A stretch of DNA of 64,000 bases, from contig OY987249.1 of assembly GCA_963920765.1 (NCBI GenBank), positions 4,001,230-4,065,229 on the forward strand, given 5' to 3'. A program made the translations under genes and the position numbers. Below the pieces are notes generated by a model. The model ran no database searches. It saw only the letters and a program-made list of their open reading frames with translations, and was not told where the DNA came from. Numbering within the stretch: the first letter of the stretch is position 1; the number at the start of each line of letters is the position of its first letter. Positions 36,346 to 59,919 of this stretch are shown piece after piece. The DNA comes from Ulota crispa (Eukaryota > Streptophyta > Bryopsida > Orthotrichales > Orthotrichaceae).

Positions 36346-36963
36346 GCGGGATCCCACGACAAATCATGCATACAATGACATGGACAACCAAACAAATTGT
36401 CCTAGTAATACAAAAACAGGATTCAATTACTAAATGTTAGAGTTGAAGTTGTAGGGTTGGATTTGAAATGGTAAACTGAAAGAACATGTAGTTATCTCAA
36501 AAACTCCTGATGTGCACACGTATAGCTACTAAGTCCAAAATCAAGATGTATAAGGTTGAAACATCAGCAATGATATAGGACAAGGAATAATTCTCTAAAA
36601 CAAAATTTTGGTACATGTTGAACAAATGTGACAGAAAAATCTATTAAGATATATAATATAGTTGGGAGCAATACACATTCAACAAGATACAATAGTGCAT
36701 GATTGGACTAGCCAATGAGAGTTGGTACATTGCATATGCAAATAAGAAAAAAGAGTGAAGTGCTCAGCTGCACAACTTAGTGTGCATTAAAAAAAAGTCC
36801 CAAAATATATAGATGACCACCAAAAAAGTAAAAGAGAGTTCGACCGATGGAGATAGCATGTTGTAAACCTTGACAAAAATAGTCCTATACAGTAAGAACA
36901 ACTAAGCTACATTTGTAATGAGGACGCCGCTAATTTGAGAGAGGAACTATTGTGGGATTCCAC
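36346..36963. repeat. Two palindrome copies (GTGGGATCCCAC family)
   Basis: GCGGGATCCCAC at 36346-36357 and GTGGGATTCCAC at 36952-36963. Both lie between coding-like relics on the - strand. Confidence 0.75.
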
Positions 36964-36989
36964 GCAAGAAATGTCACGAAAGCCCATTC

Positions 36990-37639
36990 AAAATTTCCTG
37001 CACAAGACTTGAATCTCTAGGCTCCGGGCTTTGGCCGCCCAAAAGCAGATGTGCCTTAACAAAGTCGACCGCACCTTCTTGCGAGTGAAATAGACTTTAA
37101 AGCCATGGACAAAGGTGGTGCATCAAGAAAGTGTCACTCACTTTGCCAGTCCATGATGTTAGATGGACAGCGTTAAACTCATTGTTGAGGAGGTTCTTGA
37201 CTGGATTGTCATCAATTAGTATAACCTAATCTAATGATTCCAACTACTCAAAATTCTTGTAATCCTCTAGAGCCTTCAAAAAAATTGGTTTAAATGGCTT
37301 CTCAGGCATCCTGTAGGAAGTGGTCTTGCAAGCAGATTGAGTTAAGTACTTGACGTTGCCGCGATCAAATGAGCAGCCTTTGAGCAAATCATTAACCAAA
37401 GACGACATATTCAGATCATTGACACAGTTCCAAAAGGCAACACGAGCTTTAGAAACCAACCAATCTAGGAAATCGCAAACACCTGGTCTTGTCTCAATAG
37501 AACTCTGCTTATTGACAAAAATTCTATTAATCAAGACTCCGTTCAAGTCTAGGACCACCAAATACCGTCGAATAGATACCTCATTCATGTCCATTGGCAC
37601 TAGAAGGAAATGAAGGTATAAACGACTGCAACCTCCCAA
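36990..37639 (-). pseudogene. Degraded FCP1/HAD-type phosphatase domain
   Basis: The first part (37639-37244) reads RRYLVVLDLNGVLINRIF, then ETRPGVCDFLDWLVSKARVA, then MPEKPFKPIFLKALEDY. After two stops it resumes as VILIDDNPVKNLLNNEFNAV and ends near SQEGAVDFVKAH. This is the FCP1-homology (NIF) fold of the HAD superfamily in its correct order: DxN motif, RPG loop, KPI(F/V)LK and the DD motif. In FCP1 enzymes DLDxT carries two catalytic aspartates. Here the second is Asn (DLNGV), as in several plant FCP1-like proteins, so activity would be doubtful even before decay. In-frame TGA, TAG and TAA codons after the first block show it is broken. A palindrome copy (36952-36963) lies just 3' of it. 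Confidence 0.75.
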
Positions 37640-37719
37640 CTACCAAATCTGGGTCAGTTGCAGGTTTAGGGAGTGACTAGGGAAAAAGTAGCTGACCTAC
37701 CAAAAAGTTGATGTGGAAG

Positions 37720-38340
37720 GTACCTAGTTGTATAGCAGTTGTACGTAGTTGTATTGCAGTTGGACGTAGTTGTATTGCAATTGCATATACAACGACAAAA
37801 CCAAAGTGACAACTACAAGGGATGTAGACATTTTCATCATTTATTTTCTATCACTTCTTGGATGTAAACTACTAATGTGGCTTATGTCATCCAACACAGT
37901 TGTATTGTAGTCAAAGGTGGATTCATGATACTACTACAGCCCTACTACAATACGACTAGAACACAACTGCACCTTTTTTTTCTCAATTCTTGTTCTTGTG
38001 AATTTTTTTCCTCACATTTAGCTGCCCTGGGCAGTGCTTTCTTCTACAAAAATCCAACTCTAGGTGGGTGTGAATGCATTTCATTGCGTCAGTTGTGATA
38101 GAGTTGTGTTGCAGTTGTTTATGCAATTCTATACAACTGGGTTATTACTTGGATACAACTGCGCTTTAACTAGCCCCTATCTTTCACTGCTTTCCCTATT
38201 CTCACCTTCTCAATGTTCATTTCTTTGGGTTTTTTTGCAACCTTGGAAAGAAATCTTTGTTCCACTCATTGTTGCTCATGTAAGTGTGAACGCTGCCTCC
38301 GTACGCAGTTGCTTGGCAGTCGAGACGTAGTTGGCAACAG
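37720..38340. repeat. GTAGTTGTATT-type degenerate repeats
   Basis: Words such as CGTAGTTGTATTGCAGTTG recur through this stretch in loose spacing. They belong to the same family as the 11-bp repeats at 41.9-43.5 kb. No gene is supported. The short open frames are built from the repeats. Confidence 0.5.
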
Positions 38341-41040
38341 ATTTAGCTACTACTAACTCACTACTACAATGTGACTGACACATTGCTTCCATTTATAATT
38401 TTCAAAACCCATTTTTTTGTTCATTTAAACATCTCATGCTATTATTTGTTGCCATGGGCATCAAAGTTTACCACAACCTCATCTTCAGCTCTTGGTGTGA
38501 ATGTGTTCTAATAAACAAGTTGTATTGCAATTATATCCTTTTGTTTTTTAAATTCACTTTTATATTGTAGTATCACTCAAAAACAATTGTATGCATGATG
38601 ACTGCTACTCATATTTTTTGCAACAAATTACATTCTCTGTTTACATAAAGTTTTCTTGCGACTTTTTGTTGCTCTAAACAACAATGGTACTAGCATTTAT
38701 GTTGTTAGTTGTTGATATGAATGTATTTTATTGGAACAGTTATATTGCAATTGTATTTTATTTGTTTAATAGTGTTTTATTAACGTGCAAATATTTTGTA
38801 AGATTGTCTCATAGTTGCATTACAGTTGCATAGAAAACAAATTTTGCAATTTTTTTAAATATGGTTACAAAATTATTTTGCAAATATAGAGAAGTTATTT
38901 AGCAAATTAGTCTTCACTATTATTTTAAAATTAGTAGGCTCAAAATTTTATTGATGCTTTTTGATTTTCTAAATGAATACTCTTATTTAAAGGTTTAAGT
39001 ACTCTCTTGTATTTATAATGGCATTCTTATAATATTGGACATTATCCATTTGATTTAAGTTACAATTAAATATTCTTGATAATCTAAAATTGTTAGTAAA
39101 TTATTCTTTGCACATTTTGTGATTGCATTTACTACAAAAGGTATTAACAATCATTTTGAAATTGCTTTGCCTCAACAATTTTGAACAATTTCATTTTAAA
39201 CATGATAAAAACATTCAAAATATCTACCATTATTTTTTTAACATACATTTTTTTTGACACAGCTTTTTAGTTTAATTCATTATGAATATTAATAAAAATA
39301 TCTATATAATTTGATTTTAAAAAAACGGCTTCAATAGTTTAATCATCTTGTATTAAAAAACTCAACTCAAAGTTGAACCTGATATTCTATGTAAATATGA
39401 ATGCCTTTCCGTACTATAATTTTTTTTTTTTGATTTACATCAAGGATGTATGATTGAAATGTGAAAGAGATTATTTTGTAACTTTAATATTTAGTTTAAT
39501 TTTTTTACATAAATCATTGTTATATTGCTATTTTAGTTTTTTAATATTTCTAATGTTCAATCAATCTCTTTGACATCTATTTGCAAATACATAGCTAATA
39601 ACTCCTCTTTTTAAATAATATCTAAAAAGTTTTCATTTTCAAATGGCTCACAGTTTCCTTGAACTGTTTGTACATATTAATAAGCAATTTCTGATGATAA
39701 CATTTCTTATATCAATGCCTTTAATACATAAAAAATTTAAATATTGTTTATTACAACTCTGCTTGTAGTTGTTTTGTAATTGCCCCTAAATGCTAACAAC
39801 ATGAAATTACATAAATAAATGCACTTCAACTGTAATCAATTATAGTGTTATTAATTGTAAATATGTCTTGGTTATTTTAGAATTGTATTAAGTAATGATA
39901 AACATGCAATCAAATAAACAAATGCATTATAAATAACAATGATTTAACAATATTTATAGCTTATATTACAATAAAAATTACTATTGATACAAAGACCATT
40001 ATATATTTTTATTACTACCATGTTTGATTTAGATTAGATTGTTTTATAAAAATTATTCAATCAAAAGACTCATTATTTCACTTGACAATAATTGCAAAAC
40101 TTTTGGAATATTATTGTAGAGTTTATTTATTTGTTGAAATGTTAAGTCTAAAATGATTATAATTATGATCTAAAATTTACATAGAAACTTTTGCACATTC
40201 AAAAACTTCAATAAGTATAAACCAAAATATAATCAATAACATCATTAATTAATTATGCATATTTATTTGCTGATTTTATTAACATTGAACTTCAAAAATC
40301 TTATCGTAGTAAATACTGATGCTTATTAAATTTTTGATGATACATTAGTATTATGAAAAATTAAAGCATAGTAAATTTATTAAAAAAATGAAAAAATTAG
40401 GCTGAGTTTTTTTGATTTAATTAAATTTTTGATTTAATCCAAGTATTTTTAAATAATCAACCAGTCAACTTCTCAAAAGCAATTGATGTTGTTTTAACTT
40501 ATTAACCATTCTATGTTGGACAAGTTATTGGCATTATTTATCAAATTCAATTTTAGTTCTTACTTAACTATTCAAAAATTTCAAAAATTGATTTCAAAAT
40601 CTAAAATATGTATATATATATATAATGGACAAAAAAAAAATTCAAATTAGATAATGAAACATATGTAATTTATAATCAAAATCTTGTATGAGTTCCAAAT
40701 ATCAGTTGGGAGTTATGCATTTTCTACAAAATATCTTTGTTCTTTTAATTTTTGGGAAAAAAATACTTATCCACCAATTAAAAACAATCCAATTTGGATA
40801 TATGGAAATTATCAAATGTTGTAATCAAATTTACAATATTTTTAAATTTAAAAGTTGCTTTATTGCCTTAAATTCTAATAGAGTTAATGATTACAATTAA
40901 TGTATTATTATACATACAATTATGAAATCATCACAAATTTGTTTTATATGTGTAAAAAGAGTATTTCTAAGCTTGATGACTTGAACCTTTAATATAGCTT
41001 TAAAAATTCCAAAAAGTTCAGTTTTATTGCAATGAAATTA
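38341..41040. other. Very AT-rich region, no gene recognised
   Basis: Nothing but short AT-rich open frames and homopolymer tracts. I see no domain, exon-like segment or clear transposon end. Confidence 0.5.
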
Positions 41041-41432
41041 AGGAATTACTAGAGCAACACCCTAAATTACAGTGGACACCCCATGTGAGCATGAAATTTG
41101 TTAATTTAGTGTTGTTTTTTATTTATTCAAGTGGTCCATCTCCATTCAATTACAATATTGCTACTTCTTTGAAAGAAAACATGACAAACACAAATTTTTG
41201 TTAAAGTATTATTGCACCAATATTATATTTTAATGTATTTTTCTTTAAGTAACTCAAAAGTCCTATATTCTTAGTTTCATATTTAAGCACGCCTATTTTA
41301 TTAGTATAGCCTTAGAATGATAAAAGTGAAACAAATCTTTTGATCCAAATAAAAAATCAGCATTAAAAATCACATTTCATGCTCACAAGGGGTGTCTTGT
41401 TAGCAATTTAGAGTGTTGCTATGGTAATTCCT
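41041..41432. mobile_element. Foldback MITE of about 390 bp
   Basis: Left end AGGAATTACTAGAGCAACAC. The right end on the other strand is AGGAATTACCATAGCAACAC, and the arms continue through GACACCCC and GTGAGCATGAAAT. Flanks TGAAATTA and TGAATTAT suggest a diverged 8-bp duplication but are not identical. It is non-coding. Confidence 0.75.
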
Positions 41433-42895
41433 TGAATTATTGAAAGAAACAATATCAATATTTGAAACATTATGACAACAAAGTTAGAAGTTAAAAAGAA
41501 CTATGATCCAAAAATAAATTGATCATATCAATCATTTTAGTTTTTTTTAAGATAGAAGACTAAAAAATAATAATAATCTTTCTTCTAAAATAATTTTGTG
41601 CATTCCAATATTAGATGTAAGAACTTCAAAATTTGTGAAGTGGTTTGTTCTTAATGCTTCATAGTTTAGATATTAACATGTATATAGTCCATTTCAAGGT
41701 GAAATTATATTTTGAACACATCTCTATTATTAAATTAGTTAAAAACACATATCCTTTTAAGTTATAAAGGCAATAATTCCTAAAATTGGGTTATAGTTTT
41801 TAGATCATTAATTATAAGAAAAATATGTAATAAATGAATAAGTTCCATAACAAGTGCATAACTGTAATTGAGTCATTTTGTAGTTGTTTCATAGTTATTG
41901 TATAGTCATTTGGTTGTTTATAGTCATGCACTTATTGTGCAGTTGTGATGTAGTTGTGATGTAGTTGTTGTGTAGTTGTATTCTAGTCGTTTATTGTCCA
42001 TTTTCTCTCAGTGCATCTGAACCCTTGATTAAGATTAGGGTTGGTAGTTTGGAGGGTGGAGATGTGGCCGCCACTCTTGTATCCTAGGGTCTAGGGATAA
42101 AAGGGCATGCATGGTTCCTCTCTTCCACTCATTCTTCTCACTTGTAGGGCAAAGCTCTGCCAAGATTTTTTGGGAAAGAAAGTCCCTTCTCTTTTGTTTT
42201 AGCTTGTTTCATTTGCTTGCTGTAAGTTTGAATTTGGTCTTTATTTTTTGAAAATTATTGAGGTTCTTCCTTATGCTAGTAGCTTTCCAATGACACCAAG
42301 CACGCTAGATTTTGAGTTTTGAGGAGTTTTTGGTGGATTTTCTAGTAGAAGGATGTCTACTAGATGGCAGTTTTTAACCCAACTTCAAAAATCCACATCT
42401 TGGTGAGTTTTAGCTCAATTTTTGTGGAAGTTTGTATACTGGATATGTGGTAGAGTCTAGTTTTTGAAAAAAGATGAAACCCTTATCTTGAGTTGTTAGT
42501 GAAATATTGATTGCATTTTAAATGCATAGTGGTTTTCAGCTCTATGGGTGCAATTAGGTAGTTTTCAGAAAATCATATCTCATTGTGTATATAGGATCTT
42601 ATGATGTGGCTTACATGGCTGCTAATCTTTGTTAATCCAAATGTCAAAAGTGGGCTTTTACAATTTTTAGGTTCATTTTGAAGTTTTGACAAGAGTTTAG
42701 AGAAAGTAGGGTTTGAGTGCTTTTACCGTACTATTAGTAAGAGTTTGCAATTTATAGAAGCACAATGTGCAATTAGAGTGCAACTACAATAGATTTTAGG
42801 ATTTAGGTTAATTCCTATTGCAATTGGTTTGCAATTAAATTTCAATGTATTGACTACCAATTTTTGCAAATAAATTGTGGCTCTGTACTTTGTCG
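41433..42895. other. Intergenic with 11-bp repeats at 41.9 kb, no gene recognised
   Basis: AT-rich DNA without a supported frame. At about 41938-41992 there are five 11-bp units of the type GTAGTTGTGAT. They are in the opposite orientation to those at 42965-43041. Confidence 0.5.
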
Positions 42896-42964
42896 AAATT
42901 GGTTGGCAACTGTAGTACAACTGGTTACTAGTTGTGTTACAATTGAAGTTGATGTTACATTCCT

Positions 42965-43041
42965 TTACAACTGTAGTACAACTGCAGTACAACTGCATTA
43001 CAATTGTGTTACAACTATGTTACAACTGTGTTACAACTGCA
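42965..43041. repeat. Seven tandem 11-bp units
   Basis: Seven consecutive units of the form TACAACTGYAK, all exactly 11 bp. They vary mainly at the last three bases. The open frames over this stretch are repeat translations. Confidence 0.9.
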
Positions 43042-43302
43042 TTGTTGGTTCTTTCATGTGGCACAACTGGATTACAATTGAATAGCAACTAAAACTTGTT
43101 GTGTATTACTAGAGTGGCAGTAGTTTAAAATTACATTGTCAATTGCTTTGAATTCATTCTCTATTTATAGTTGTATGGTAGTTGTGAGCATGATTGTTAT
43201 TGCTTCATGTATTTTTTCTATAACAAGCAATGGTTATAACCAAATAAAAAATAACAAAAAAACTTCAAAAATCAATATTCACAAAATCAACATAAACAAC
43301 TA

Positions 43303-43478
43303 TAGTACAACTATAGTACCACTACACTACCACTACACTTCCACTACACTTCTACCACACTACAGCCACACTACTACCACACTACAATTAGAATACAACT
43401 ACATAACAAGTACATTACAACTATATAATAATCATATTACAATTGCATTACAACTACACCACAACTAGACTACAACCA
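43303..43478. repeat. Sixteen tandem 11-bp units
   Basis: About sixteen consecutive 11-bp units of the type CATTACAACTA or CACTACCACTA. The strict 11-bp register is kept although the sequence drifts a lot. Confidence 0.85.
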
Positions 43479-43680
43479 CACAACAATTCATTACAATTAC
43501 GTGTGACATGCACAATTACTATATTAAAACTACCTCCCAACTACTTTACAGCTAGTATACGACTGCAAAGTAGTCATGTCTTATTACAGAGGTAGTGTGA
43601 TACAAAAAGAATTATCAAACAAAAAACTTTCCAATAACTAGATTTTGGACACGTGGCAGTAGGCGATGCATGAGTCAAAT

Positions 43681-43804
43681 GTACATTGAATGCTATCTTG
43701 AGATATCTGAAAAAGATTTCAAGAGACAAAGGAAAAAGAAGGGTACACTGAATATTGTCTTGGGATATGTGAAAAAGATTTCAGGAGATGAAGGAAAAAG
43801 AAGG
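43681..43804. repeat. 62-bp tandem duplication
   Basis: Two adjacent 62-bp units begin GTACATTGAATGCTATCTTG and GTACACTGAATATTGTCTTG. Both end GGAAAAAGAAGG. They differ at about nine positions. Confidence 0.85.
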
Positions 43805-45467
43805 GCAGCAAGGGTTGTGACCACAAAAAAATTTTGAATTTTCATGGATGAAAGTTTTTTTCATTGAAGTTGCAGTTGTGGTAGATATCATTGAGTCACA
43901 ACGACTGTTTCATGACTGCTTCACGACTATTTTTGAATAGAATACGAGTGAGAATGTTTTGCAGTTGTAATGGCTTGAAAAGCTCCATTCCCCACTGAAA
44001 TGTAGTTGCCATACAGTCACCACGTAGTTGCTAGTTGGAGTCGTTTATTGGCCTTTTTCTTCTAGTGTGGGATCGTTTTGACATCTCTGTCAACATCTGC
44101 AAAAAAAATTGTATGGTAAATAATTTTGGCCTCATCAACAAAGTTGTGGTAATGAGTTACCGAATGTAACCACTGGGGAAATAAGATCACTCACCGTTGA
44201 CATTCCCAACAACGTTGACACTTCCATCCAATTCCATTGGAATTCTTTGGAACGTCGAGCTTGGTCCCGCATCATTTCCCGCACCCTACCCAAGTGCGAT
44301 ATCAAAAATGTTTTGGTAAGTAAAGAGGTGCGCAAGTCTTACGGCTTTAGTGTGCCTAGACTCTCGAGTTTTGTAGCTGCGTGTAGAGTCATGATTGAAA
44401 CAAGAAAATTGTGCAAAAACTTTGAACATTCCCCACAAGCGGACCTTCTCACTCTATATGTCAGCAAGATCAACAAAATTGACAGTTGACTTTAGTGAAT
44501 CCTGTTTCACATGCAAAGTTGCTAGACTAAGAGCAAATAAATCAGTCATTGTATCCAGTACAACTTGCGTAGACATGGGTTTAGCGGGACCTGATTCTAA
44601 GTCTGTTGAAACGCTGTCATCGAGTGCGGCTGATGTATTTCCCTCCATTGTGGGATCCTGCGCTGACTCCTGCACGGTATTCTTCTGCCTCTTCCTCTCC
44701 ACCACACCAAATCCGGAGTCACTAACTGTGGAGCTAACTTCGTTCTCTGTAGACTTCTCTGTCAGCGTTCAAACAGCAGGCACTTTGGTATCCCTCGATA
44801 AGGATGTGGGCAATGCAGAATGTGCTTCTAGAGCGGCTGAATTTGCATTGGCATCTACTATAGCAACGAGGGCTGTTGGCATAGGCAAATCGACGACAGT
44901 ACTAAGTGCCCGAAGACATAAGCGCGAATTACAATGAGGGATGTCCTCAGCGTGGGCTTCATCGTCGTTGGAAATTGGTGTGACAACTAACTAGCTCTGG
45001 ATTTGTCATCTTGCGGGTATCCTAGGGGCTTTGGCTGACTTTGACAACTTCTTTGATGGCTTCACTGTGTTCTCTTGGGGTTGAACTACCTGCTCTGGTT
45101 TCTTTACAAATTTATTTGAGGAGGTAGCCGCTGATCTAGAGGAAAGTCCCTTCTTATTGGACAAAACAATAGACTTCGCCTTTGCCGGTTTCATTGAAGG
45201 AACTGTTGGATTGGACTGCTTGGGTTTGGAGCGACTCCGGACTAACCGCCTTTGCGTGATTTTGACATGAGGAACCACTTGCGATTAGTGCAATGAAAAG
45301 GGGATATGAATAAGTGTGTAAAAGCTGGAATTGAGGAGTATCTCCCATCGTAAGATACCATGATGTGTGACATTGCCGGGTCCCGGCTGCGATCTAGCAT
45401 GGATTCCAAAGAAGAATGGGAAGAATGGGGATGTAAGATCAATGGAAAAACCCAACTATCTCTTATT

Positions 45468-45479
45468 GTGAGATCCCAC
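45468..45479. repeat. Palindrome copy in presumed intron
   Basis: GTGAGATCCCAC followed by AATAG, between two coding-like segments of the - strand pseudogene. Confidence 0.75.
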
Positions 45480-47278
45480 AATAGACAAAGAGAACTTATA
45501 GAATCCGGTGGGTGAATGACCTTACATCCGCAACTTCCGGCATGTCAAGCAAATCATCACTGCCGTCGCTGGATTTTGAGGAGTTGTCATTATGTACATT
45601 TTGAGCGATTGCGGCTGGCAGAGACAAAATCTAGTCAAGGATGTTGTTGGTCACAATGGCAACCTCAGTCGATCTTGAGAGATCTCAAATTTGACAAGCA
45701 ATGATCTCCGCGGCAATTTTGGCTTTTTCAGAGTCAACTACTTCTAGAATCTTGCATTTGACTATCTGAAAATTAAACTTGGATGTCAAAAATAAGGTGT
45801 TGATGAATTGAATAATAAAATAAGCGGAGAAAACAAAGTCATGGACAAGGAGGATCTACCATTCCAAGGTTAGTAAACTTAGGGCCACCATTGACATTCA
45901 TGAGAACCATGTCGTCTGACAAGTGCTGCTTGAACATATTGCGTGTAGTTTATAATCTCATCCAAGAAAGCCGAAGACGCCTCCAGAATCTACTCTTGTC
46001 CTCTGTATTGTCCATCACATAGAATGGAGAAATCTCATCCTTACCATGGAAGTAGGTAGCAAAACTATTCGCGTTACTGTTGTCTTTGAAAATTCTAAAA
46101 AGGACAATCACAAAAACATTATATTGAGTACCAGCAATTGGACTTGGGAAATTGTCTGCTGTAAGTGGGAAGTAGTTAATGAGGTGAAAACCCCAGACTT
46201 TAGACTTTGCCTCCTTCTTCTTGACTACCAAGTGACTTTGAATTTAAAAAAGGCCAGCGACGTCCGTCAAAAATACTGCTAGTGATTGAGCAACAAGTCT
46301 CATATTAATTCTGGCTTTGTCCTTCTCCATCGTGTCAAAAAGCTTCTTCAGCTTTCGGTCTTCAAAAAACTTAGCACGAACTCTTGTGGCTGCTTCTTCA
46401 AACATAAAGTAGAAATAAATGTGATACTTCTGTACTCCGTGCCACTTTACAACACTCGGCTCTGCTAAAACAGCACTAATGTTCTAGGCTGATTTGTCCA
46501 TTGTCATGCACATGTACTAGTGTGCAAATGCAAAGTCGCGATCCTCTTCAATGGCAACCACTGTATCCTCATCCTTAGAAGTTCTCCAGAGATCAATAAT
46601 CCAAGCCGGACAAGCATTGGCGTTGGTAGTCCTATTTAGTCCAACAGTCCGTCCTAGAAGCCATTTCTTCCTGGTGCTAGTGTCATATGCCATGTTCACC
46701 CAATGCATATCTGAAATCTTCTTCTTTGCCGCAAAGGCGTCCCATTCCTCTGCAGTATAAGGTACGTAATCTTTAGAATTGTTGAATAGTGGCTTCTATT
46801 TGTAGTGGAAGAGGAGCTCGTTCTTCATTGTCCTCTCATGTCTAATCCACGTCCCCGCGGCCAATAGCAATTAAATTGAATTTGCCTGGTTAGTGGATTT
46901 TGCTCTAGAGCTCTTCACAAAAACCAACTTCTTCTTGACTTGCGTCGCGAGGAAAGCAATGTCTTCCGGTCAAAGTCTGTAGATCATCTTGAGGTCGTAC
47001 TGAGTGAGGGGCTTTTGGTTCGCTGATCGTTCATCTTCTATTTTTCCTGACCCATCCGGTAGAATACCCTTCACGTAGACTTCCTCAATCTTGACCCAGC
47101 GCTGAACCACGGCGTCATCCTCCACAAACATTAAGGGAATTTTTGGATCGGAGGCCACCTTTGATCCTTTAATGTTTGTGAAGATTGTCGACAGTAGAGG
47201 ACTAAATTTATGTAAAATTGTGAACCAAGATTTAACGAATAAGGAAAATGCTGTGAGAATACCGGATATCTAATCATT

Positions 47279-47290
47279 GTGGGATCCCAT
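47279..47290. repeat. Palindrome copy in presumed intron
   Basis: GTGGGATCCCAT between the coding-like segments that end at 47304 and begin at 47158 on the - strand. Confidence 0.75.
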
Positions 47291-48760: not shown

Positions 48761-49134
48761 GTGGGATCCCACAATATACTACATTTACTGAATAATACTA
48801 CTAAAAATCATCTAACGGAAATCTGGAATAATCAAGTAGTTCAACATCGTGAGATCCCATGCTGTCATCAACACAGATCCCACCTTGCCTCTTATTGCGG
48901 GATCTCCATACCACATATATTTATGAATTACAGAATATAAGCTAACGTGAGATCCTATGATGACCCACAATGTGAGATTCCGTGATAACCACATTCAAGG
49001 TATCCAGAAATTTCAAGGTATTGTGGGATCCCACGATGTCAGACATCAAGGAATCAAAAGATCAAAGGCAAGGACATATTTCAAAAGACAGGGCATAGTA
49101 GGTTCCTACGATGTGTGACAGCGTGAGATCCCAC
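48761..49134. repeat. Palindrome cluster upstream of the - strand pseudogene
   Basis: Within 374 bp there are two exact GTGGGATCCCAC cores (48761-48772 and 49023-49034). There are also variants at 48850-48861 (GTGAGATCCCAT), about 48889-48905, about 48949, about 48981, about 49098 and 49123-49134 (GTGAGATCCCAC). Flanks extend the symmetry to ATYGTGGGATCCCACRAT. The cluster sits directly 5' of the first recognisable exon of the 44.4-48.7 kb pseudogene. Confidence 0.9.
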
Positions 49135-51400
49135 GATGGATAGTAGGTCAAGAGCAATTTGTACAATCGAAACATAAATATTACAATATTGACTATTGTG
49201 TTGTTATTACTTACACATCCTGCAGATCTAGGTTGGTTTGTACTGTCGCGCCAAACGATGTTGCCATACTATTCCTGTTCATTGAATTACAGTGGTTTGG
49301 CCTTCAATATCAAGTACAAATTTGTTGGGCTCAGTGCAATCCTGCACAACATTATCATGTTTTGGGATCACACTCCATTGATGTCTACAAGACTCTGCTA
49401 CGGTAATGTACAAATACCTCATACACACAAGTGCTATTGGATATTAGGTTAGTGTCATTGGTCGCAAGATTCTAACACTCATATCAATACATCACCAAAT
49501 GGCATTCACTATGAACTAAAGTCCAGCTCAGTAGCAATCGAACAACTTAGACATAGCAATACATCCATTCATTCAAGCGAATGCAATATGAATGAATCCA
49601 TATTAGCCCTAGTACATTTGTTGCCTCTGGTCTGTAGTAGGGACCACTTTGGATGATAAAGTTTGGGTTAATCAGATCCATTTTCATGGAACAATTTGCA
49701 ACACCATTCCACAATGAATCAACATGGAACAAACTAGAAGAGATCATAGTACTCTGTATCATAGTTGCTAAAATTCATGCTCGCAATACCTTCCTATGTC
49801 CTCATACTCTCATTGTCTCATATAACCAATTTCAATTCTAATAATTGCATTATCTTCCTTATTTACAATTGAAATGCTAATGCATAATGATTTAACACAC
49901 GCCAAATTCGTTGAAATTGTAGAAATTTGTAACTAGGTTCCTGAAAATTGTGTTTGGAGAACCATCTTCTGTGCTCATATGCTCATCATACTAGTTTCAT
50001 TATTTTCCAATCACTCACATGGAGTACGCCGATTGACCCACTTCTCATTTGGAACCAATAGTGTTTTACTCGTATTCAAATTTCTCCGGTTGTTCAGTCA
50101 AACTACTTACAGTTATTTGTGTCAATCTCAAGTTTTGTGCATCACTGAGCTTAGCTAAAACAAATCTTCTCTTATGCAATGCTAATGAATGCCCTAAATT
50201 CAAACAAAGCAGCAAATTTTAATCCACAAATGACCATTTCACTATAAATTGCAAATTTCCCCGCTGACCCCTACATTGTTCTCTCTTACTTCAATGACGT
50301 GCAATTTTAAATGATGTCAATTAACATTACTTCATGTGGAAAGGATTTTGAAATCCAAGTCTACCTACAAGTTTGTGGCAAAGCACTACAAATGCATAAA
50401 GGAATCCTCGAAGATTGCAAAAACTACAAAAAACGCCCACCCAAAGATAAATCATGCACCTGTAATTTAATGACAATTGCAGATGGACGACAGGCTCATT
50501 GCCGCGCGCCGGACTTCAACTTTGTGGCACCAAAATCGGCGCCAGAGATGCCACCACGCAATCCAACTCCGGCGCTTCTAATACTAAAAATTCAAGGTAC
50601 AAACGCCAATGTCTTTGACAAGCATTGTACAAGCGAGCCTCGCCACAATTCACTACCAATCCTCCTTCTCAAAGACAATGATCACAACACTGGCAAGGGA
50701 AGTAATGATGCGCCATAAAGAGGGTGAGCATAGTGTCCGATAAAGAATTGAAAATAGCAAACACACAAGAAGGAGAAAGCCATTGCGGGGTACTGACTAC
50801 TGAGGTCCTGTTCCCATTGAGGAACGAGCCGCCAATTCCGGTTGGGAACGCCATCATTGCTTGGTAGTCTATCCTCTTGATAGAACGTCCATCATCATTG
50901 CTGTACATGTCGTTAGGATTGCAAAATTTCTGGATTTGTGGGCCGTATCTTCTGACATCAGTCAATTTGCTTGAACAAAAAAAATTGATATCTCCATATC
51001 AGAGATTATGTTTTCTTCAATCATAATATAATTTTGCCTTCCTTCATTATACTCTAAACATGAAATAAACATCAAAATCCGGAAGAGAAATCTAAGTGCA
51101 TCCTAACAATAATTTTGAAAACAAAATTACAACAGCAATCCCAAAAACTAAATCTTCAACACGAGTTATATGACAACTTCAATGAGGATTGCATAGGGGG
51201 TTACATAAAACAATGAGACACGCAACAACTAGAGAGGCATACCCTAAACCCTACTGAATGGAAAGGATACCAAGGAACATGAAGAGGCACTTGCATGATT
51301 ATTCATGAGAAATACCTAACCATGTCATGATGATTACCATAATGAATGAGAATAGGCTCATTTTAAGACGACAAGGTAAGATCATGGTGTGGGTTGTATG
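49135..51400. other. Region without a clear gene; one coding-like - strand segment
   Basis: Mostly short unsupported frames. A - strand segment at about 50965-50770 reads DVRRYGPQIQKFCNPNDMYS followed by a Gly-rich stretch. It looks protein-like and could be an upstream exon of the - strand pseudogene. I recognise no family. Confidence 0.3.
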
Positions 51401-51423
51401 GTAATTTCTGTGGAATTAATTGT

Positions 51424-51900
51424 GCTAGGGTAACGTGCCCCCATGAATTTTTGTGGAAGCATTAGAGCCATTAATAGTGGTCATCTCCTTTTAGCCTACC
51501 ATGCTTTAGGGTTTAGGGTTTAGGGGGGTTCATTCATTTCAAAAGCAAAATGAATGGGAATTAGGCAATTTAGGGACCACAAGTTCAGATCAAGGTATGG
51601 ATCATGGGGTAATTTTTGTGGAATTCATTGACTCATAAAAAGTGGTGTCCCTTTGTGGCCCACCATTTGCACACTTGGACAAAGTAAGAGGCATTTTTTA
51701 TGACATATCATTAATACTTGGATGGGGCTGAAATTTGCACCAGGAGTACGTGCTAGGGTAAGGTGCCCCCAAAGAATTTTTGTGGAAGCATTAAAGTCAT
51801 CAACAGTGGTCATCCCCTTTTAGCCTACCGTGCTTTAGGGTTTAGGGTATGATGAGGGTTCATTCATATCAAAAGCAAAATGAATGGGAATAGGTTCATT
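51424..51900. repeat. About 140-bp direct repeats with telomere-like core
   Basis: 51424-51580 and 51752-51890 share TTTTTGTGGAAGCATTA, GTGGTCATCYCCTTTTAGCC, TGCTTTAGGGTTTAGGG and CAAAAGCAAAATGAATGGGA in the same order, with minor differences. A weaker copy lies near 51591-51665. Confidence 0.8.
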
Positions 51901-52249
51901 TTGGGACAATTTATTCAATGCTAGTTTGTTCCAAAAAAAGAAGCAACTGTCCCATACCCTACCATACCTTCTACTGCTGGAGTTCACTCCTTTTGCTGAA
52001 TATTTTATAAACCATTTGAATTGAAACCCCATTTTATCCTCTTATCAAACTTAATGCTTGTATGGACCATAAACCAAATAAGTGTCATGATTTTCCACAG
52101 GAACCCTAAACCATAAACAACCCTTACCATAAATTTACCACAGAAATTGACTCCAATTCTTTTGAAAGATCTTTGGAGGCCCCGTACCCTATCATGAGTC
52201 ATGGGTTCAAATTTCAGCCCCATCCTAGCATTTTTGCTACAAAACAAAG

Positions 52250-53220
52250 CTGCCCCCCTCTTTTAGCAGTGCTTGCCAAATGTGACCCCAGAAGGGGTCA
52301 CCACTCATAATGTTTCAATTAACAAACAACAAAATATCCCAAAAGTTCTATACCCTAACCAAAGCTCTTGGTGAAAATTCTACCCACTTTTAAACTTTTT
52401 GCTTAGTAACATGAATTAACCCCCCATTTAGAGTTTATGGCGCATGTTATCCAAAGAGAGACTCCAAAAGGACCCTAAACCCTGAACCTCCCGTTTAGGG
52501 TTTAGGGCGCATGTTATGAAAGAGAGACCCCAAAGAGGCACCATTGAGAATGACTTCAATGCACCCACTAAAGTGTATGGGAACAGGTTACCCTAGCGTA
52601 ACCTTTTGTTCAAATTTCAACCCCATTCGAGCATTTTTGTTGTAGAATCAGTGTGCCCTATGCCTCTTCTTTTTAGTCATGTTAGCAAAATGTAAATCTA
52701 GAAGGGGTCACTACCAATTTATTGTCAATTAATATCATAGTAGTTCCCACATAACCCTGACCCTGAACCAAATCCTATGATTAAAACATCAGCCCACTTC
52801 AAAAGGTTTTGATTATTGATTTAAATTGACCAGTCATTTAACCCTTGTAGAGCATGATTGCCAAATGTGGCTATAAAATGGAGTGACCACTCTAAACCAA
52901 CTCTAGTTCTTCCACAAACTAACATAAAGGCTTGGTGGAAAGTATAGTCCCATGAAATTTCATTTAGTAAGAGATAAAAATTGGACCCTGTTTTGGCCAT
53001 GTTTGCAAAATTGTATCTCCAAAGGATGTAACCAATGATATGTCTCAATTAATTCCTTGGAAAATCCCAAATAACCCAAAATTTACCCTAACCCTTTGGG
53101 GAAAAAACCAACTCATTCCCAATGCATTAGCTTATCAATTTGAATGAATCCACCATCCATCATATCACCCTTGTGCCAAAATGTGACCCTGAAGGGGGTC
53201 ACAACCAAAAACAATTTCAT
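52250..53220. repeat. Degenerate tandem array containing GAAGGGGTCAC blocks
   Basis: A block of the type CCAAATGTGACCCCAGAAGG, then GGTCACNACNNATAAT and a CAATTAA motif, recurs near 52275, 52686, 52860, 53006 and 53172. Each is followed by CCCTAAACC-type text. Spacing is irregular (about 150-410 bp). It is an old, diverged satellite-like array, probably continuous with the 51.4-51.9 kb repeats. No gene. Confidence 0.6.
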
Positions 53221-54536
53221 GCTTCCACGGAAATCTATGAAGGCGCCTTACCCTAACAGAAGCCATGGGTGCAAATTTTAGTCGTATATGTGCTTTTACA
53301 TTATTGATTTATAAAAGAAAGAAAGTTGACTGGTAGAGATTTATATTTGGATACAATAGTTTAGTGAGAGTACCATTCAAGTATTAGAAGGCCTCTTATA
53401 TTATTCAACTAGATCATTCCTTATGATGGTAGAAAATAGAGGCCACAAGAACACTAGACCTTGTGGTACAAGTACAGGATAATGCTCTATCAATCATTAT
53501 TTTTGGTCATGGAGGTGAAGACGACTACACTCAAATTTTGAAGTGATGAAGCAAATATATGGCGGGGTGCATTATTTTGAAATCCAAGAACTTTGTCAAC
53601 AGTTTTATGGCAATATCCGGACTCTTAACCTAAATTCCTTTATCCGCCATACCATTGCTCCTGACATTCAGACTGTCTTGCTCATGCTTTTGGTGGTGCA
53701 CCATTTTGATTTAGTCACTTGCTTATGCTTTCTTAGAGCGCCAATTTGATTTAGTACATGCTCGTTTAGTTCAGTGCAGATTGTAGTTGAATCCTTAGTT
53801 GCGATCAACTATTCTATCGGGCGACATATCAAAGAAGACAGAGCGGCGCATGTTCAGCCAGAAATTGCCAAGGCATTATGCTCCAAGTTACTTCAGGAGC
53901 GATAGTTTGCGCTTTGGAGCTATGCAGCAATCCCAGACATCATTGCATCCAATTCTTGGAGGTATTGATCTGTGTCTTGCCAATTTTAAGTTGTCAGTAT
54001 TGTCATGAAGTATCTATGAATTGAAGTCTACTGTATTTTTGCAATGCCATTGATTGCATCAATGGTCTAGGGTGTGTATTAAAAATGCTAAAAAACGTGG
54101 ACCTGGGCTGTCTATTACAATGTCTTTGTAGATTTTGTGCTCCAATATATTAGATGGTATCGTGGGATTAGCATGCTAGCAGGCGTTATTGATTTCGGTG
54201 GAACGGTTATATTAAAGACGGTTATAGCATGAATGGCAGGGTTTGATTTAGAGGATTATGCATATTACCCTGCTTTTGAATGAAAGATTTCAAAAATCTT
54301 AGTTATGATCGCTATTAGTGAGTGGCTACAACAGATTTTGTTTGGAAATCAATACAGATGGATGGATGTCCCATTTTTCATCCTATCCAGCACAATGATT
54401 AGTTAATTTGGAAATTTTGTTGAATTTAGGGATATTTTCAATGGAAGTTCAATGTCTAATGTATCTATTGTCCGTATAGTCCGTCATCAGTGGAAGATGA
54501 AGCTGGCTTTGCGGTCTTTCGCAATTTTTTATTATT

Positions 54537-55063
54537 GTGGGATCTCATGATACCTGTTGTGGTGATTGTCCAATATATGAAGATTTACGGATGTCATGGA
54601 TATTTGGTAATCAGAGTATCGTGGAATCCCACGCTAGCAGTAAAAGCCACTCTCTAATTTTGGTCATTTGATCGTGGGATCCCACGTTAGTAGATGGTGT
54701 TGTTGTTCAATAGGAAATCACTGTCTTGTCGATCACTAGATGGATAGTACTACCTGTGTTTCTGTGAAAATATTCTGCGGTGGGGAATTAGTGTCAGATA
54801 TGAAGGACTCTCGATATATTTGGAATCACTGCATCGTGGGATCCCACAATAGGATGTGCTACCTTTTTGCATGCGAAGGTCAGAGCATCATGGGATCCCA
54901 CGGTAGATGGCATTGGTGCTTTTCTCATGTTGGTTACAGCTGTATTGTTAACCACTGCTGAGGGTTTAGGGTATGATCCCTTTGGATTTGTAATTCTCTA
55001 TTTTTGAATGGTTTGGAATCGATGTTGCATGATAATTAGAATCACTGCATTGTGGAATCCCAT
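54537..55063. repeat. Palindrome cluster in presumed first intron
   Basis: Copies at 54537-54548 (GTGGGATCTCAT), 54621-54632 (GTGGAATCCCAC), 54674-54685 (exact GTGGGATCCCAC), 54836-54847 (exact), 54890-54901 (ATGGGATCCCAC) and 55052-55063 (GTGGAATCCCAT). A half copy lies near 54164. They lie between the exon-like block ending at 53961 and the next at 55214. Confidence 0.9.
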
Positions 55064-56528
55064 GCTAGTTGTCCGGTGTGCCGGGCCTTAATATAATCTA
55101 TTCTTCGGTTGTTGTCTTAACAGGAGGATAGTCTTTTTGTTTTAGGGTCTCATTCCACGATTCTAGATGTTGTTGCAGGATTCATAGCTTTTTGTTTTGA
55201 TATACCGGAAATCATGGAACCATCCAATGAATCAGTTGTGCACAAAGCTGATCTACTTGCAGTCGTTCCATTCCTAATAGAGGAATCCCAAGACTCCTCT
55301 GGTTTCTCAAAAACATTTTGTAGTGGAGATGATATCAAACTCATTATTGATGGAGTCAAGGAAGTAGGTTTAGGTACTATTTTAGAGGCACAACCCATTG
55401 GTGAATGGCTTGGGGTTGTCATTCCTTTGGACCCGTGGGTATTCACCCTCATACGGCCTATAACCATTATTGCTTTTGCTAGGCCTCTACCTGTGGACTC
55501 CTGTCAGAAGGATTTAAGGACCCTTGGAGATGTTGTTGGCCAAACAATGCTATGAAAGGTATCAGGTTTGGATAAGTGTACCAAGGAACCTCCCATGGAT
55601 ACCTCTCCTTTCATTTCCTAGAGTGAGTGGGTTGGACTCAAAGTGCACTTGAGGAATGAGGTAGATGACTTAATTTCTTCCGATTGCATAAACTATTCCA
55701 TTGCTGACAATCATTTTCAAGGAGGAACACTTGGCGAGGATGACAATGAAGTTACAATTTTGGTCATTTTCCATGGTAACAAGGACAACATCATGACTCA
55801 CTATAGATGGCCACTATCATCATGCTGGTTCTCCAATGGTCAATCATTGGAAGATACATTATAGCATTTTGCATCCTACCCGTTGTTGATGATCCCCTAT
55901 CATATCTGGATGGACGCATGAAAGCTCCATATTGTTTTATTGTGCGGAAGCCTAGCTTAGGTAGCAAGGACTCCCAATATGTTATTAGGACACAAGAGGA
56001 AGAGATTTGGAAAGTCAGCTCCCTAAAATGCTGCAATAGTTGTTGCTATCAATTTTTTCCTCAGCAATCAACATTGATCGTTAGGCATAAGTTCTACCTC
56101 AAGTCATTTGATGATAACTGCAAATACGGGATCCGATGGTCAAATTCATTACAAGGACGCGATTAGGAATTGCAAATTCATCACTCTTGATAGTATAGAG
56201 GTGTGCACGACAGCTTGGCATTTGATTCATGAAATCCCCAAGTCAACGTATCACAATTATATTGATCAGCATAAGGCTGGTGTGATATTTGGGACTCATG
56301 GAAACAAGGGGATTAAGCATCCCAGAGTGGCAACTGTCCAAGTCATAGGAAGAATGAAAGCAATCATTGATGACAACGCCAACCAAATGCCACACCAAAT
56401 GCGCAGCATCAGAAATGGAAGAATGGATACTCTCAAATTCCTTCTGGCTAAGAACAATTGGAAGCGCGTGCAAGCTGACGCCAACGAGGTCGGTCCCTTC
56501 TTCATGTACTCAGTCTTGTTATTCCATC

Positions 56529-56663
56529 ATGGGATCCCACGCTGCTTTCATATTCATTCACCAGCCCTAATGGCATCCATGTCTATGTCTATATTTATTT
56601 GTTAGGCATCGTGGAATCCCATGATGATTCTGTTGACCTTATTTAGTCATTGTGGGATCCCAC
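56529..56663. repeat. Three palindromes in an intron of the DUF7869-type pseudogene
   Basis: 56529-56540 (ATGGGATCCCAC), 56611-56622 (GTGGAATCCCAT) and 56652-56663 (exact GTGGGATCCCAC). All three fall in the intron between about 56490 (donor) and 56722 (acceptor TAGCAG). Confidence 0.9.
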
Positions 56664-58722
56664 AATAAAGTTCTTTGCGGTCTAATTTTCTTTATACCTG
56701 ATTTTATATGTAACCATAGCAGAAGTTGACCTCATGATTTGTTTGTATGAGCAATTGAATGTGGACTACGAGCTTCGACCAGTGAGCCAGTCAACTATTA
56801 GTAGAATTAAGAAAGAGCTTTTTAACAATGTATCCATCAAACCTGTTGGTAGCTCTTTTGCGAAATGCAGTACCTACGACCAACTTCAGCAGTTTCTGCT
56901 CGAGACTCCAAAAGGGAGTCCCAAATATGTCAAGTTCATGAAGCAGCACACTAAACATTTGAATTATCAAGCCTCATGCCGACGACTATATAAATCCTGG
57001 CGTGAGGACTCCAAAAGAAATCTCAAGGATTTTCTTTGTGTTATTCATGACAAAATGGGTATTGCCAAAATTGCTCTTTCGAGGATGTGACAGACAACAA
57101 AGGGAACAGTTGGTTTTAGGCAACTTCCTATAAGTGTAATGGGAATGGTAGCACACGGTCACGGCAACGGTGCATACGCACATTACGCTCCTTTGTGTTG
57201 GCCTAGGAACTCCAACTTTACCATTTCTTCCTTAGCAAAGTTATTACGCCAATTAGAGGGTCCTCCAATTTGAGAATCCAGTGACTTATTTCCATTTCCA
57301 CCTGCAAATCCAATGTTTGAGGCGCATCTTAGAGGAAAATCTAGGTGTCTAGAGAGTCTAAATCTAACCGACCTCGCATGTCACTTAGGAGCAAAACCGC
57401 TTCCTAAAAATCTATATCTTCAACTTGACAATTCTACCAAGGATAACAAAAACAAGTATTTGATGGCTTTCCTTTCCCTCCTCTCGGCTTAAGGAGTCTT
57501 TAGGGAAATTCAGGTAGGGTTTTTGCTAGTCAAACACACGCACGAGGACATTGATGCATATTTCAGTCATCTCTCCAAGGCTTTGAAGAGCAAGAACACT
57601 TTCATATTGGCTGATTTAATGAAAGCCTTCATGCAGTTGCAAGAGCTATTGTTTATGCTGGAAATTATTCAAGAGGTTGGGGACTTCAAATCTTTTGTGA
57701 AAGATTTCTAGAGCAGCGGGTCATCTAGATTAATTGGGTTGGGAGAGATGCACATTTTCCGGTTTTTTATTGACAGTGATGGAGTGCCGGTTATGAGGTG
57801 TAAGAAATCCACCATTGATACATAATGGCTACCGGTTGACCAGCCCTCTATTTGGATTTGGAAGTGAGACAGCAATGGCAGGCCTATGCTCCCTCCAAGA
57901 AATCCAAAACCAATGCCATTCAAGCCTATGTGGGGTAGCAAAGTTCCAAAGGAGACATGTAACCAAGACAAGGCAAGGGAAATGGCTCGTAAAGCTACAG
58001 TGAATAAGGGTTTTATGTTAGTTGGACTAGAGAAGTACATTCAGTACTAGAGAAATGGTATGGCAAAATGCGTGGGTTTTGCAACGGCTTTTGGTCCTTA
58101 CGTTGATTATTGGAATCACGTGTTGCTTGAGCTTTAGGAACCAATGTCTAACTCCCCTTCTAAATTAGTAGAAGGTTTCTGGCCAATGCACAATTGGAAG
58201 CTTGCACTTGACAACACATTTTGGTCAAGGGACGGAGGGGATCCCATGGATTCCATTCCTAAAGTGGAGGAGCGTGAACCTTATTGCAATCCGGCAAATG
58301 AAGCACCACATGAAAGCTTTAACCTTAGGCCCGATGTTTGCCCTGGGTCTTGGATTCTTTTAAGGCCCGAAGACCCAATCATTTGTGCTATTTGGCTTGG
58401 AAGAGCATTGTCCACTGTTTGCTTAGTATACAGTGAAGTGAATCACGGGAAGTTCTTGATTCAGTATTGGCAACCTGATAATTCTAAAGCAGATCTACAG
58501 ATGAAGTATAGTGACTGCTAGAATGGAAAATGGAAAGTGGAGAATACTGCTCCAACATGGGTCGACGCAACCTCTGTAGTGTACTCCACTTGGTCTAAGG
58601 TTGAGCATCCAAAGACAAAGTCCATTTCAAAGAGATGTTGTCATGCTGCATTGCACAATCTCAGTAGGGCCAATGAGGCTGACCCTTGATTGAGTACCTA
58701 GCTTTCTGATTTCTATGTCATC

Positions 58723-59498
58723 ATGGGATCTTCTGATAGGTCCCAATTTTCAGGGTTCATGCTTTTGTTTTCATTGGGGGATCCCACGATCTTCCCTAAG
58801 TTCATCCAATTCGGGTGTTAGTATAGCAAATGGATTCCTTCATGTTTTCCAATGTCAAGTTGTCATTGTTTCACTATTGTCGTGGGATCCCACAATATGT
58901 TCCATGTACCTAGCAGAAGGTATTGTGTCTTACTTTCGACTAAAGGCACTTTGCCAGGGATATATCTAGTATTTATTAGTTGTATGCTTCTTTCATGACT
59001 CTTGTGCAATTGGATAAAGCCATGGACTTACAAAGTGTAATAAAGTTTGTTAATACTAATTGATTGCCCCCCTCTCTGGTTTTTTGGACATCTACTTATG
59101 CTGTTATGGGACCTTCAAGATAAGTTGATTGCCTCTCCTTTAGGGTTTTTGATATCTACTCATGCTGTTTTGAGACCTTCGAGCTATGCCTAGAACCTAC
59201 CCTCATTGTGGGGTCATCTTTTACTAGCATTCTATGAGGTTCATGGAGAAATTGTTCTTGGTATATTGAAGTGCTCTTGAATTTGCATATTATTAATATT
59301 TGTATGTTATCTTAATATTTATGTGGTTGCGACTTCTGCAAACTTTTCAACTTATGCTTCCTCCTCTGCTTATACAAAGGTTATGCTTTATCTTTCGTCA
59401 GCATGTGACGCTAACTGTCTGAATTTGTGCAATCTTTACAACCATGACCCCTTACTGAGTTCCCTATTCTGCTCACCATTATCGTCGTGGGATCTCAT
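58723..59498. repeat. Palindromes 3' of the DUF7869-type pseudogene
   Basis: 58723-58734 (ATGGGATCTTCT), 58776-58787 (GGGGGATCCCAC), 58882-58893 (exact GTGGGATCCCAC) and 59487-59498 (GTGGGATCTCAT). They begin just after the last coding-like segment ends at 58689. Confidence 0.85.
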
Positions 59499-59842: not shown

Positions 59843-59919
59843 GGTAACAAAAGATGATGCTTTTTATTTTTGAATTTGTTAATATAGCACAATTTATTTT
59901 TATCATTGCAATGCTAAAC

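What the first reader, a model, noticed from the sequence alone, without database searches (positions are those of the whole stretch)
36346..59498. Dispersed palindrome GTGGGATCCCAC confined to one 23-kb interval
Seen directly: six exact copies of the 12-bp core (48761, 49023, 54674, 54836, 56652, 58882) and about fifteen or more close variants lie between 36.3 and 59.5 kb. I noticed none of similar quality outside. By chance one expects far less than one exact copy in 64 kb. The symmetry extends to ATYGTGGGATCCCACRAT. Variants are mostly single transitions that keep one half intact. It could be a tiny self-spreading palindromic element, a transposase or regulator binding site, or an RNA hairpin in introns. 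No known plant element with this core comes to my mind.
Basis: partly seen in the sequence, partly recalled or inferred. Interest (0 to 1): 0.85.

Follow-up and report, generated by a model that had tools for sequence, protein, structure and literature searches.

The report
Giant plant transposon's own palindrome code
The repeated palindrome is a built-in part of a decayed 25-kb jumping gene in what looks like a plant genome, and related jumping genes carry a slightly different palindrome at corresponding places, which suggests that each family marks its own DNA with a private code read by a protein.

Summary
In detail: 22 copies with at most 2 mismatches, 6 exact, all between 36.3 and 59.5 kb, against 1.1 expected by chance. 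They are not a free-living mini-element. They lie inside one large DNA transposon (34984-59842, 24.9 kb) with terminal inverted repeats, a 4-bp target duplication (GGTA) and a gene for the uncharacterised domain DUF7869. Genome-wide, 33 of 39 exact copies lie in or near such elements; the other 6 match the chance control (7).

The full motif is a 20-bp palindrome, YATYGTGGGATCCCACRATR. Some 20-30 copies per full element sit mainly upstream of its genes, in probable introns and near both ends, mostly (62 of 70 spacings) about 25, 53, 80, 106 or 160 bp apart; linker sequences are not conserved. The two arms mutate independently, which argues against an RNA hairpin. A sister subfamily carries a different palindrome (YATYNGGGGATCCCCNRATR) at corresponding places; among listed sites no locus had both. 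One more distant DUF7869 family has an unrelated dyad motif.

Best reading: binding-site arrays for an element-encoded dimeric protein, co-evolving with it, resembling the VANC anti-silencing system of Arabidopsis VANDAL transposons in an apparently unrelated element. The binder and the anti-silencing function are inferred, not shown.

The parts
34984..59842 (+). whole DNA transposon (24,859 bp), decayed copy, oriented by its DUF7869 gene
   Evidence: Homologous to copies on contigs C2, C6, C7 and C11; ends set by terminal inverted repeats
34980..34983 (.). left target-site duplication GGTA
59843..59846 (.). right target-site duplication GGTA
34984..35011 (+). left terminal inverted repeat ATGCCATATTTAACTACTTTTGGACTAT
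59815..59842 (-). right terminal inverted repeat (same 28 letters on the minus strand)
35057..35249 (.). two left subterminal motif sites (35057, 35230), imperfect
   Evidence: about 75 and 240 bp from the left end also in C2, C7 and C6b
35881..36105 (-). conserved ORF of unknown function, with a motif site about 240 bp upstream at 36342
36342..36361 (.). motif site CATCGCGGGATCCCACGACA
37250..37588 (-). ORF with weak NIF (FCP1-like phosphatase) similarity: 19.2 bits in the window (cut-off 21.8), 22.0 bits in the C6b copy
37650..44100 (.). 6.5 kb AT-rich stretch absent from the C2 copy: probable nested insertion (boundaries approximate)
44292..48425 (-). minus-strand gene or genes, no Pfam domain found, broken here; 406-aa open stretch in the C2 copy
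47275..47294 (.). motif site between two coding stretches of the minus-strand gene (probable intron)
48757..49138 (.). left array: 8 motif sites upstream of the minus-strand gene (exact cores at 48761 and 49023; two of the 8 only just pass the score)
54533..55067 (.). right array: 6 motif sites upstream of the DUF7869 gene (exact cores at 54674 and 54836)
55214..58686 (+). DUF7869 gene in several coding stretches; pseudogene here, seven stops in the stretch 56746-58050
57091..57708 (+). DUF7869 (PF25273) domain in three pieces, E 2e-14, 3e-10 and 4e-5 (the last below Pfam's cut-off)
56525..56667 (.). three motif sites in a probable intron of the DUF7869 gene (exact core at 56652)
58719..58897 (.). 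three motif sites 3' of the DUF7869 gene (exact core at 58882)
59483..59696 (.). right subterminal motif sites (59483, 59677), 340 and 146 bp from the right end
   Evidence: both offsets also in C6b and C6c, one of them in C2 (146) and C7 (340)

Best explanation
The palindromes are an array of about 20-30 binding sites built into the noncoding parts of a large DUF7869-bearing DNA transposon. A dimeric protein, most likely encoded by the element itself, binds them cooperatively upstream of the element's genes, in its introns and near its ends. In plants the likeliest purpose is to keep the element's own chromatin open and its genes on (sequence-specific anti-silencing, as VANC does for VANDAL), with control of transposition timing or end synapsis as the alternative. 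Each subfamily has its own version of the palindrome, as expected if site and reader co-evolve. SHOWN: location inside a TIR/TSD-bounded element; confinement to such elements genome-wide; noncoding placement in the copy counted; retention of motif and spacing but not linkers; independent arms; subfamily-specific base at +-5. INFERRED: that a protein binds, that it is dimeric, that the element encodes it, and that the effect is anti-silencing.
For: Confinement: the 20-mer (<=2 mm) has 146 genome sites against 3 in the control, and 47 of the 50 listed lie within 28 kb of one of 38 DUF7869 loci, an area of 0.8% of the genome. Transposon: shared TIRs, and exact flush 4-bp TSDs in 9 of 13 end pairs. 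Placement: 2 of 24 sites of the C2 copy fall in exon-like stretches that make up 31% of it. Conservation: window aligned to other A copies, identity at sites is 0.68-0.82 against 0.45-0.62 outside in 4 of 5 regions. Spacing: 62 of 70 spacings up to 170 bp fall at 25, 48-54, 75-84, 102-107 or 156-165 bp; period about 27 bp, R 0.71 against a maximum of 0.43 in 500 uniform trials. Linkers are 0.29-0.44 identical between units, the motif 0.65-0.83. No arm covariation. Code switch: T at -5 in 50 of 62 half-sites of the window against 1 of 94 in related loci, p=4.6e-28; G at -6 in 42 of 62 against 38 of 94, p=0.001. Of 100 listed sites, 7 loci hold A and 16 hold B, none both; A and B are separate clades, 100/100. 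A distant DUF7869 family has an unrelated dyad motif in an 81-bp tandem array. Parallel: VANC binds short motifs in noncoding regions, in tandem repeats that diverge between families (PMC5735166, passages; PMC10398659, abstract).
Against: No binder is identified; the minus-strand gene has no Pfam match and its fold failed (pLDDT 36). It does not stand out as fast-evolving: window against C2 it is 55% identical, like the N-terminal part of the DUF7869 gene (54%). Sites in the 3' region are no better conserved than their surroundings, and among the other A copies 3 of 6 regions show no excess at sites, slightly less in fact; the sites were also chosen by their match to the motif. Two of three distant DUF7869 families sampled over 4 kb showed no clear palindrome array. 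Spacings, arms and site counts come partly from homologous sites, so the statistics are not independent. VANC motifs are not palindromes. No methylation, expression or binding data exist here.
Confidence: 0.6

Rival explanations
1. The sites are binding sites of the transposase (the DUF7869 protein or a partner) used mainly to recognise and synapse the element, like the subterminal repeats of Spm or hAT elements, rather than for gene control.
For: Sites occur about 75 and 240 bp from the left end and 146 and/or 340 bp from the right end in several copies; clusters of sites and regular spacing suit a nucleoprotein complex.
Against: Most sites of the window copy are kilobases from the ends, upstream of genes and in probable introns; the outermost left site is imperfect in all four copies aligned.
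Confidence: 0.2
2. The sites are bound by a host transcription factor that the transposon exploits for expression.
For: Sites sit upstream of both gene groups and in probable introns.
Against: Sites of an element share the subfamily version, and the +-5 base differs between subfamilies; a host factor would not be expected to change specificity with the element. Outside the elements the exact core is at chance level (6 against 7).
Confidence: 0.1
3. The palindromes act as RNA hairpins or DNA cruciforms.
For: Perfect 18-20 bp palindromes can fold; some are in probable introns.
Against: At 10 paired positions over 169 distinct sites, complementary pairs do not exceed independence except one nominal p=0.018 in ten tests. 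A dyad without a loop is a poor RNA hairpin (general knowledge). Neutral decay after insertion could hide some covariation.
Confidence: 0.04
4. The arrays are only relics of tandem duplication (a minisatellite) in the ancestral element, with no function.
For: The number of sites at 25-bp steps differs between copies (3 in C7, 4 in C6b), and spacing is regular. VANDAL arrays also grow by tandem duplication (PMC5735166, passages).
Against: The motif is retained while linkers are near random; sites outside arrays, in introns and at ends, carry the motif too; the motif differs in concert between clades.
Confidence: 0.06

Closest known systems
VANDAL transposons and VANC anti-silencing proteins (Arabidopsis; Hosaka 2017 PMC5735166, Sasaki 2023 PMC10398659)
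   Same: Short motif dense in noncoding parts (introns, upstream regions) of the element and rare elsewhere; motif differs by a few bases between related families; motifs lie in tandem repeats that gain and lose units; several element genes.
   Different: Here the motif is a 20-bp palindrome rather than a 9-bp motif arrayed in one orientation; the element has a DUF7869 gene and a 4-bp TSD (VANDALs are Mutator-like, recalled); no binder or methylation effect is shown.
Spm/En, Ac and hAT subterminal repeats (recalled)
   Same: Many copies of a short sequence within a DNA transposon bound by its own protein.
   Different: Here sites are spread over 20-25 kb, upstream of genes and in probable introns, not concentrated at the ends.
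Eukaryotic DNA transposon superfamilies with 4-bp target duplications, e.g. Ginger1 (4 bp) and IS481EU (about 4, 15 or 25 bp) (PMC10045372, passages)
   Same: 4-bp target duplication, TIRs.
   Different: The TIR starts ATGCCAT here, whereas IS481EU ends in TGT (passages); DUF7869 gave no match to a solved structure by sequence. Relation to any named superfamily was not established.
DUF7869 (Pfam PF25273)
   Same: Domain clearly present (and E=5.5e-38 in the C6b copy).
   Different: Its Pfam name gives no function; no paper in the library mentions it.

Membership tests
Cut-and-paste (TIR) DNA transposon | Terminal inverted repeats shared by copies | tested here: met
   377 genome hits to the TIR 22-mer with <=3 mismatches, 5 in control
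Cut-and-paste (TIR) DNA transposon | Fixed-length target-site duplication | tested here: met
   exact flush 4 bp in 9 of 13 end pairs; the others: 3 of 4 bases (L039/L040), none (L051/L052), 7-bp repeat not flush (C2), ends seemingly exchanged with another copy (C6b)
Cut-and-paste (TIR) DNA transposon | DDE/RNase H-like transposase | tested here: inconclusive
   DUF7869 gave no PDB sequence match; fold of the window stretch failed, pLDDT 33
VANDAL/VANC-like anti-silencing system | Family-specific motif dense in noncoding regions of the element and rare outside | tested here: met
VANDAL/VANC-like anti-silencing system | Motif diverges between related families, with tandem-repeat growth | tested here: met
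   the number of 25-bp steps varies between copies
VANDAL/VANC-like anti-silencing system | Mutator-type (VANA) transposase and homologous VANC protein | tested here: inconclusive
   In Pfam scans of 26 protein pieces only DUF7869 and NIF passed Pfam's cut-offs; VANC itself was not compared, and the pieces are partial
VANDAL/VANC-like anti-silencing system | Encoded protein binds the motif and removes DNA methylation | not testable with these tools
   needs binding and methylation data
Endogenous giant-virus insert | Viral hallmark genes or relatives in viral contigs | tested here: not met
   no viral-contig relative of DUF7869 (one scan); only DUF7869 and NIF pass Pfam's cut-offs in 26 pieces; TIR and TSD of a transposon
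RNA hairpin element | Compensatory change between arms | tested here: not met

The most novel reading that the evidence does not exclude
DUF7869 elements are an undescribed superfamily of giant plant DNA transposons that independently evolved a VANC-like self-recognition system, in which each family carries its own palindromic address code, switched in concert across some 25 sites as its reader protein changes specificity.
Probability: 0.4. Interest if true: 0.85.

Novelty: new variant of a known kind. Interest (0 to 1): 0.72.

Why it matters
If true, sequence-specific anti-silencing by transposons arose more than once in plants and in an unrelated element type. The A and B subfamilies give a natural before-and-after pair for studying how a DNA-binding protein and some 25 scattered sites change specificity together. 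It also gives a likely context (a mobile element) to the uncharacterised domain DUF7869.

Tried and rejected
Endogenous giant virus: my first idea from gene content; set aside because of TIR/TSD ends, no viral-contig relative of DUF7869 in one scan, and only DUF7869 and NIF above Pfam's cut-offs.

Coding explanation of the palindrome (repeated peptide): rejected, spacings such as 53 are not multiples of 3 and sites lie in several frames and in noncoding stretches.

TCP-factor site GTGGGNCCCAC (recalled): the core here has a 2-bp centre, so it does not fit; not tested further.

ParB-like reading of the minus-strand protein (a GQH stretch seen by eye): no Pfam or PDB support.

Fast evolution of the minus-strand gene as a mark of the binder: A against B it is 42% identical, against 65% for the DUF7869 exon, but window against C2 it is no faster than the N-terminal part of the DUF7869 gene, so this does not single it out.

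ORF-homology test for coding overlap of window sites: it marked 12 of the 31 sites as coding-like, but it is muddled, because DNA homology makes antisense and noncoding open stretches match too. I used exon-like stretches of C2 instead (2 of 24). These were chosen by hand, and two of the eight (2116-2631 and 2821-3336) are C6b coordinates applied to C2. At least one window site (44646) lies within a conserved minus-strand coding stretch.

Structure predictions: two single-sequence jobs, pLDDT 36 and 33, no information.

The third distant-family motif (ATTYAGCTCNNNNNGAGCTRAAT) has 1060 sites against 6 in control, but only 9 of the 50 listed are within 28 kb of a DUF7869 locus, an area of 2%. 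Its link to these elements is partial.

An earlier count said 10 of 12 TSDs; the recount is 9 of 13.
Full report
Observation. Searching GTGGGATCCCAC with up to two mismatches gives 22 hits in the window, 6 of them exact, all between 36346 and 59498; shuffles give 1.1 on average and 4 at most.

What it lies in. Exact copies in the whole genome number 39, against 7 for the reversed control. They cluster at a few places, and tblastn with a protein stretch at about 57.5 kb of the window, which belongs to Pfam DUF7869, finds close relatives next to the same clusters. Counting by hand, 33 of 39 exact copies are in or near such elements, including a partial one at C11:5.338M, and 6 are elsewhere. Three of those 6 were read (L022-L024), and none has the flanking YATY/RATR. 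Comparison of the loci shows an element of 20-25 kb, collinear in most copies, that in the window runs from 34984 to 59842. It has inverted repeats ATGCCATATTTAACTACTTTTGGACTAT at the ends and GGTA on both sides. Of 13 end pairs examined, 9 have an exact flush 4-bp duplication. The four that do not: L039/L040 (3 of 4 bases), L051/L052 (none), C2 (a 7-bp repeat not flush with the end), and C6b, whose left flank matches the right flank of C6a and whose right flank matches the left flank at C6:245357, as if two copies had exchanged halves.

Genes. On the plus strand, several coding stretches at 55.2-58.7 kb make a protein with the DUF7869 domain (E=5.5e-38 in the C6b copy). In the window this gene is broken: the stretch 56746-58050 has seven stops, where the C6b copy has an open frame of 525 codons. 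On the minus strand, 44.3-48.4 kb codes for a conserved protein without known domain. At 37.25-37.6 kb lies an ORF with weak similarity to NIF phosphatases. The host looks like a land plant: a neighbouring ABCB gene matches an ABC transporter B family member 19 best, and TTTAGGG runs occur.

The motif. Aligned sites give a 20-bp palindrome, YATYGTGGGATCCCACRATR. A score that ignores positions +-5 and +-6 finds 31 sites in the window element against 3.2 in a Markov control and 3 against 3.2 in the rest of the window; seven other full or partial A copies hold 11-28 each. Sites lie upstream of the minus-strand gene, upstream of the DUF7869 gene, in probable introns of both, 3' of the DUF7869 gene, about 75 and 240 bp from the left end, and 146 and/or 340 bp from the right end. 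In the C2 copy 2 of 24 sites fall in exon-like stretches, which cover 31% of it; a cruder test on the window marked 12 of 31 as coding-like, including sites in the arrays and introns, and I do not trust it.

Constraint. In regions aligned between the window and other copies, identity at site columns is 0.68-0.82 against 0.45-0.62 outside in four of five regions; in the 3' region there is no difference (0.79-0.80 against 0.79). Among the other A copies the excess is present in three of six regions and absent in three, where sites are slightly less conserved. Of 70 neighbour spacings up to 170 bp, 62 fall at 25, 48-54, 75-84, 102-107 or 156-165 bp and 8 elsewhere; R=0.71 at about 27 bp against a maximum of 0.43 in 500 uniform trials. 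Copies share ancestry, so this is not an independent sample. Within arrays the motif is 65-83% identical between units and the linkers 29-44%. So motif and distance are kept while linkers are not.

Mechanism tests. If the palindrome worked as a paired strand, arms should covary. Over 169 distinct sites (188 in all) they do not; one of ten pairs reaches a nominal p of 0.018. This fits two half-sites read by the two halves of a protein dimer. Decay is mostly C>T and G>A (220 of 344), as expected for methylated transposon DNA, though methylation was not measured.

A different code in relatives. A related element on C2 (6721425-6742535) has none of the A cores with up to two mismatches in the 12.4 kb read, but 17 copies of GGGGATCCCC with at most one mismatch. 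Sites occur at corresponding places: upstream of its minus-strand gene, in that gene's probable intron and upstream of its DUF7869 gene. The base at -5 is T in 50 of 62 half-sites of the window element and in 1 of 94 half-sites of loci L055, L056, L032, L057, L029, L033 and L034 (p=4.6e-28; L031, with one site, was left out); at -6 G is 42 of 62 against 38 of 94 (p=0.001). Genome-wide the B 20-mer (<=1 mm) has 274 sites against 1 in control. Only the first places of each search are listed: of the 50 A and 50 B sites listed, 47 and 45 lie within 28 kb of one of 38 DUF7869 loci; 7 loci are A, 16 are B, none is both. The 3 unmatched A sites are in the partial element at C11:5.338M; the 5 unmatched B sites were not read. 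A tree of DUF7869 exon DNA puts the 6 A rows and the 3 B-like rows in separate clades with 100/100 support (11 rows, midpoint root, C6b left out as its protein is identical to C6a). One of three more distant DUF7869 families sampled over 4 kb has an 81-bp tandem array with an unrelated dyad motif; the other two showed nothing clear.

Interpretation. A motif scattered over promoters, introns and ends of an element, kept in number and spacing, and changed in concert between subfamilies, is best explained as the target of a protein that the element itself encodes. The closest known system is VANC/VANDAL of Arabidopsis: VANC21 binds YAGTATTAY in noncoding regions, VANC6 targets carry a different motif, and targets grow as tandem repeats (PMC5735166, passages read; PMC10398659, abstract). 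VANC removes DNA methylation over its element. Whether the protein here does so is unknown. The element type differs, and no protein of the element has been shown to bind.

Literature. DUF7869: no paper in the library. Searches for moss transposons with subterminal palindromes, large or new DNA transposon superfamilies, palindromic motifs in moss elements, and transposon anti-silencing in moss listed nothing that by title or start of abstract describes this element; the passages shown of a Physcomitrium TE paper (PMC7466625) name only Mariner-type DNA elements. The library lacks most subscription papers, and Repbase could not be searched, so novelty is provisional.

Noticed in passing
window 37650-44100: About 6.5 kb of AT-rich DNA with 11-bp tandem repeats (ACAACTACACT) lies inside the transposon but is absent from the C2 copy: probably a nested insertion. 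Its ends were not resolved.
   Followed up: partly
G000 C6:245357-294766 and C6:352868-374928: Two A copies seem to have exchanged halves: the left flank of each matches the right flank of the other as 4-bp duplications (CCAT, ATTG), and one half is inverted.
   Followed up: partly
G000 C7:6301036-6324472: This copy looks like a mosaic: the minus-strand gene of C2 is closest to that of C7 (81%), while the DUF7869 exon DNA of C7 is closest to the window's (86%).
   Followed up: partly
contig C11 (6.3 Mb): 14 of the 38 DUF7869 loci used for counting lie on this one contig, which is 2.3% of the genome: strong enrichment, perhaps a repeat-rich or sex chromosome.
   Followed up: no
L058:1121-1473: Upstream of a distant DUF7869 gene, an 81-bp tandem repeat carries the dyad motif ATTYAGCTCNNNNNGAGCTRAAT, with 1060 sites (<=2 mm) genome-wide against 6 in control; 41 of the 50 listed sites are not near DUF7869 loci.
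   Followed up: partly
whole genome: The TIR 22-mer has 377 hits with up to 3 mismatches (5 in control), far more than the full elements seen, which suggests many non-autonomous relatives.
   Followed up: no
window 19300-27000 +: ABCB-type ABC transporter gene in several exons; the one exon searched matches ABC transporter B family member 19 best.
   Followed up: partly
window 30569-30761 and 62157-62275: Tandem repeats with units like TACCACACC(C/A)TTTCAA on both sides of the transposon; similar sequence also lies between parts of the C6a copy.
   Followed up: no
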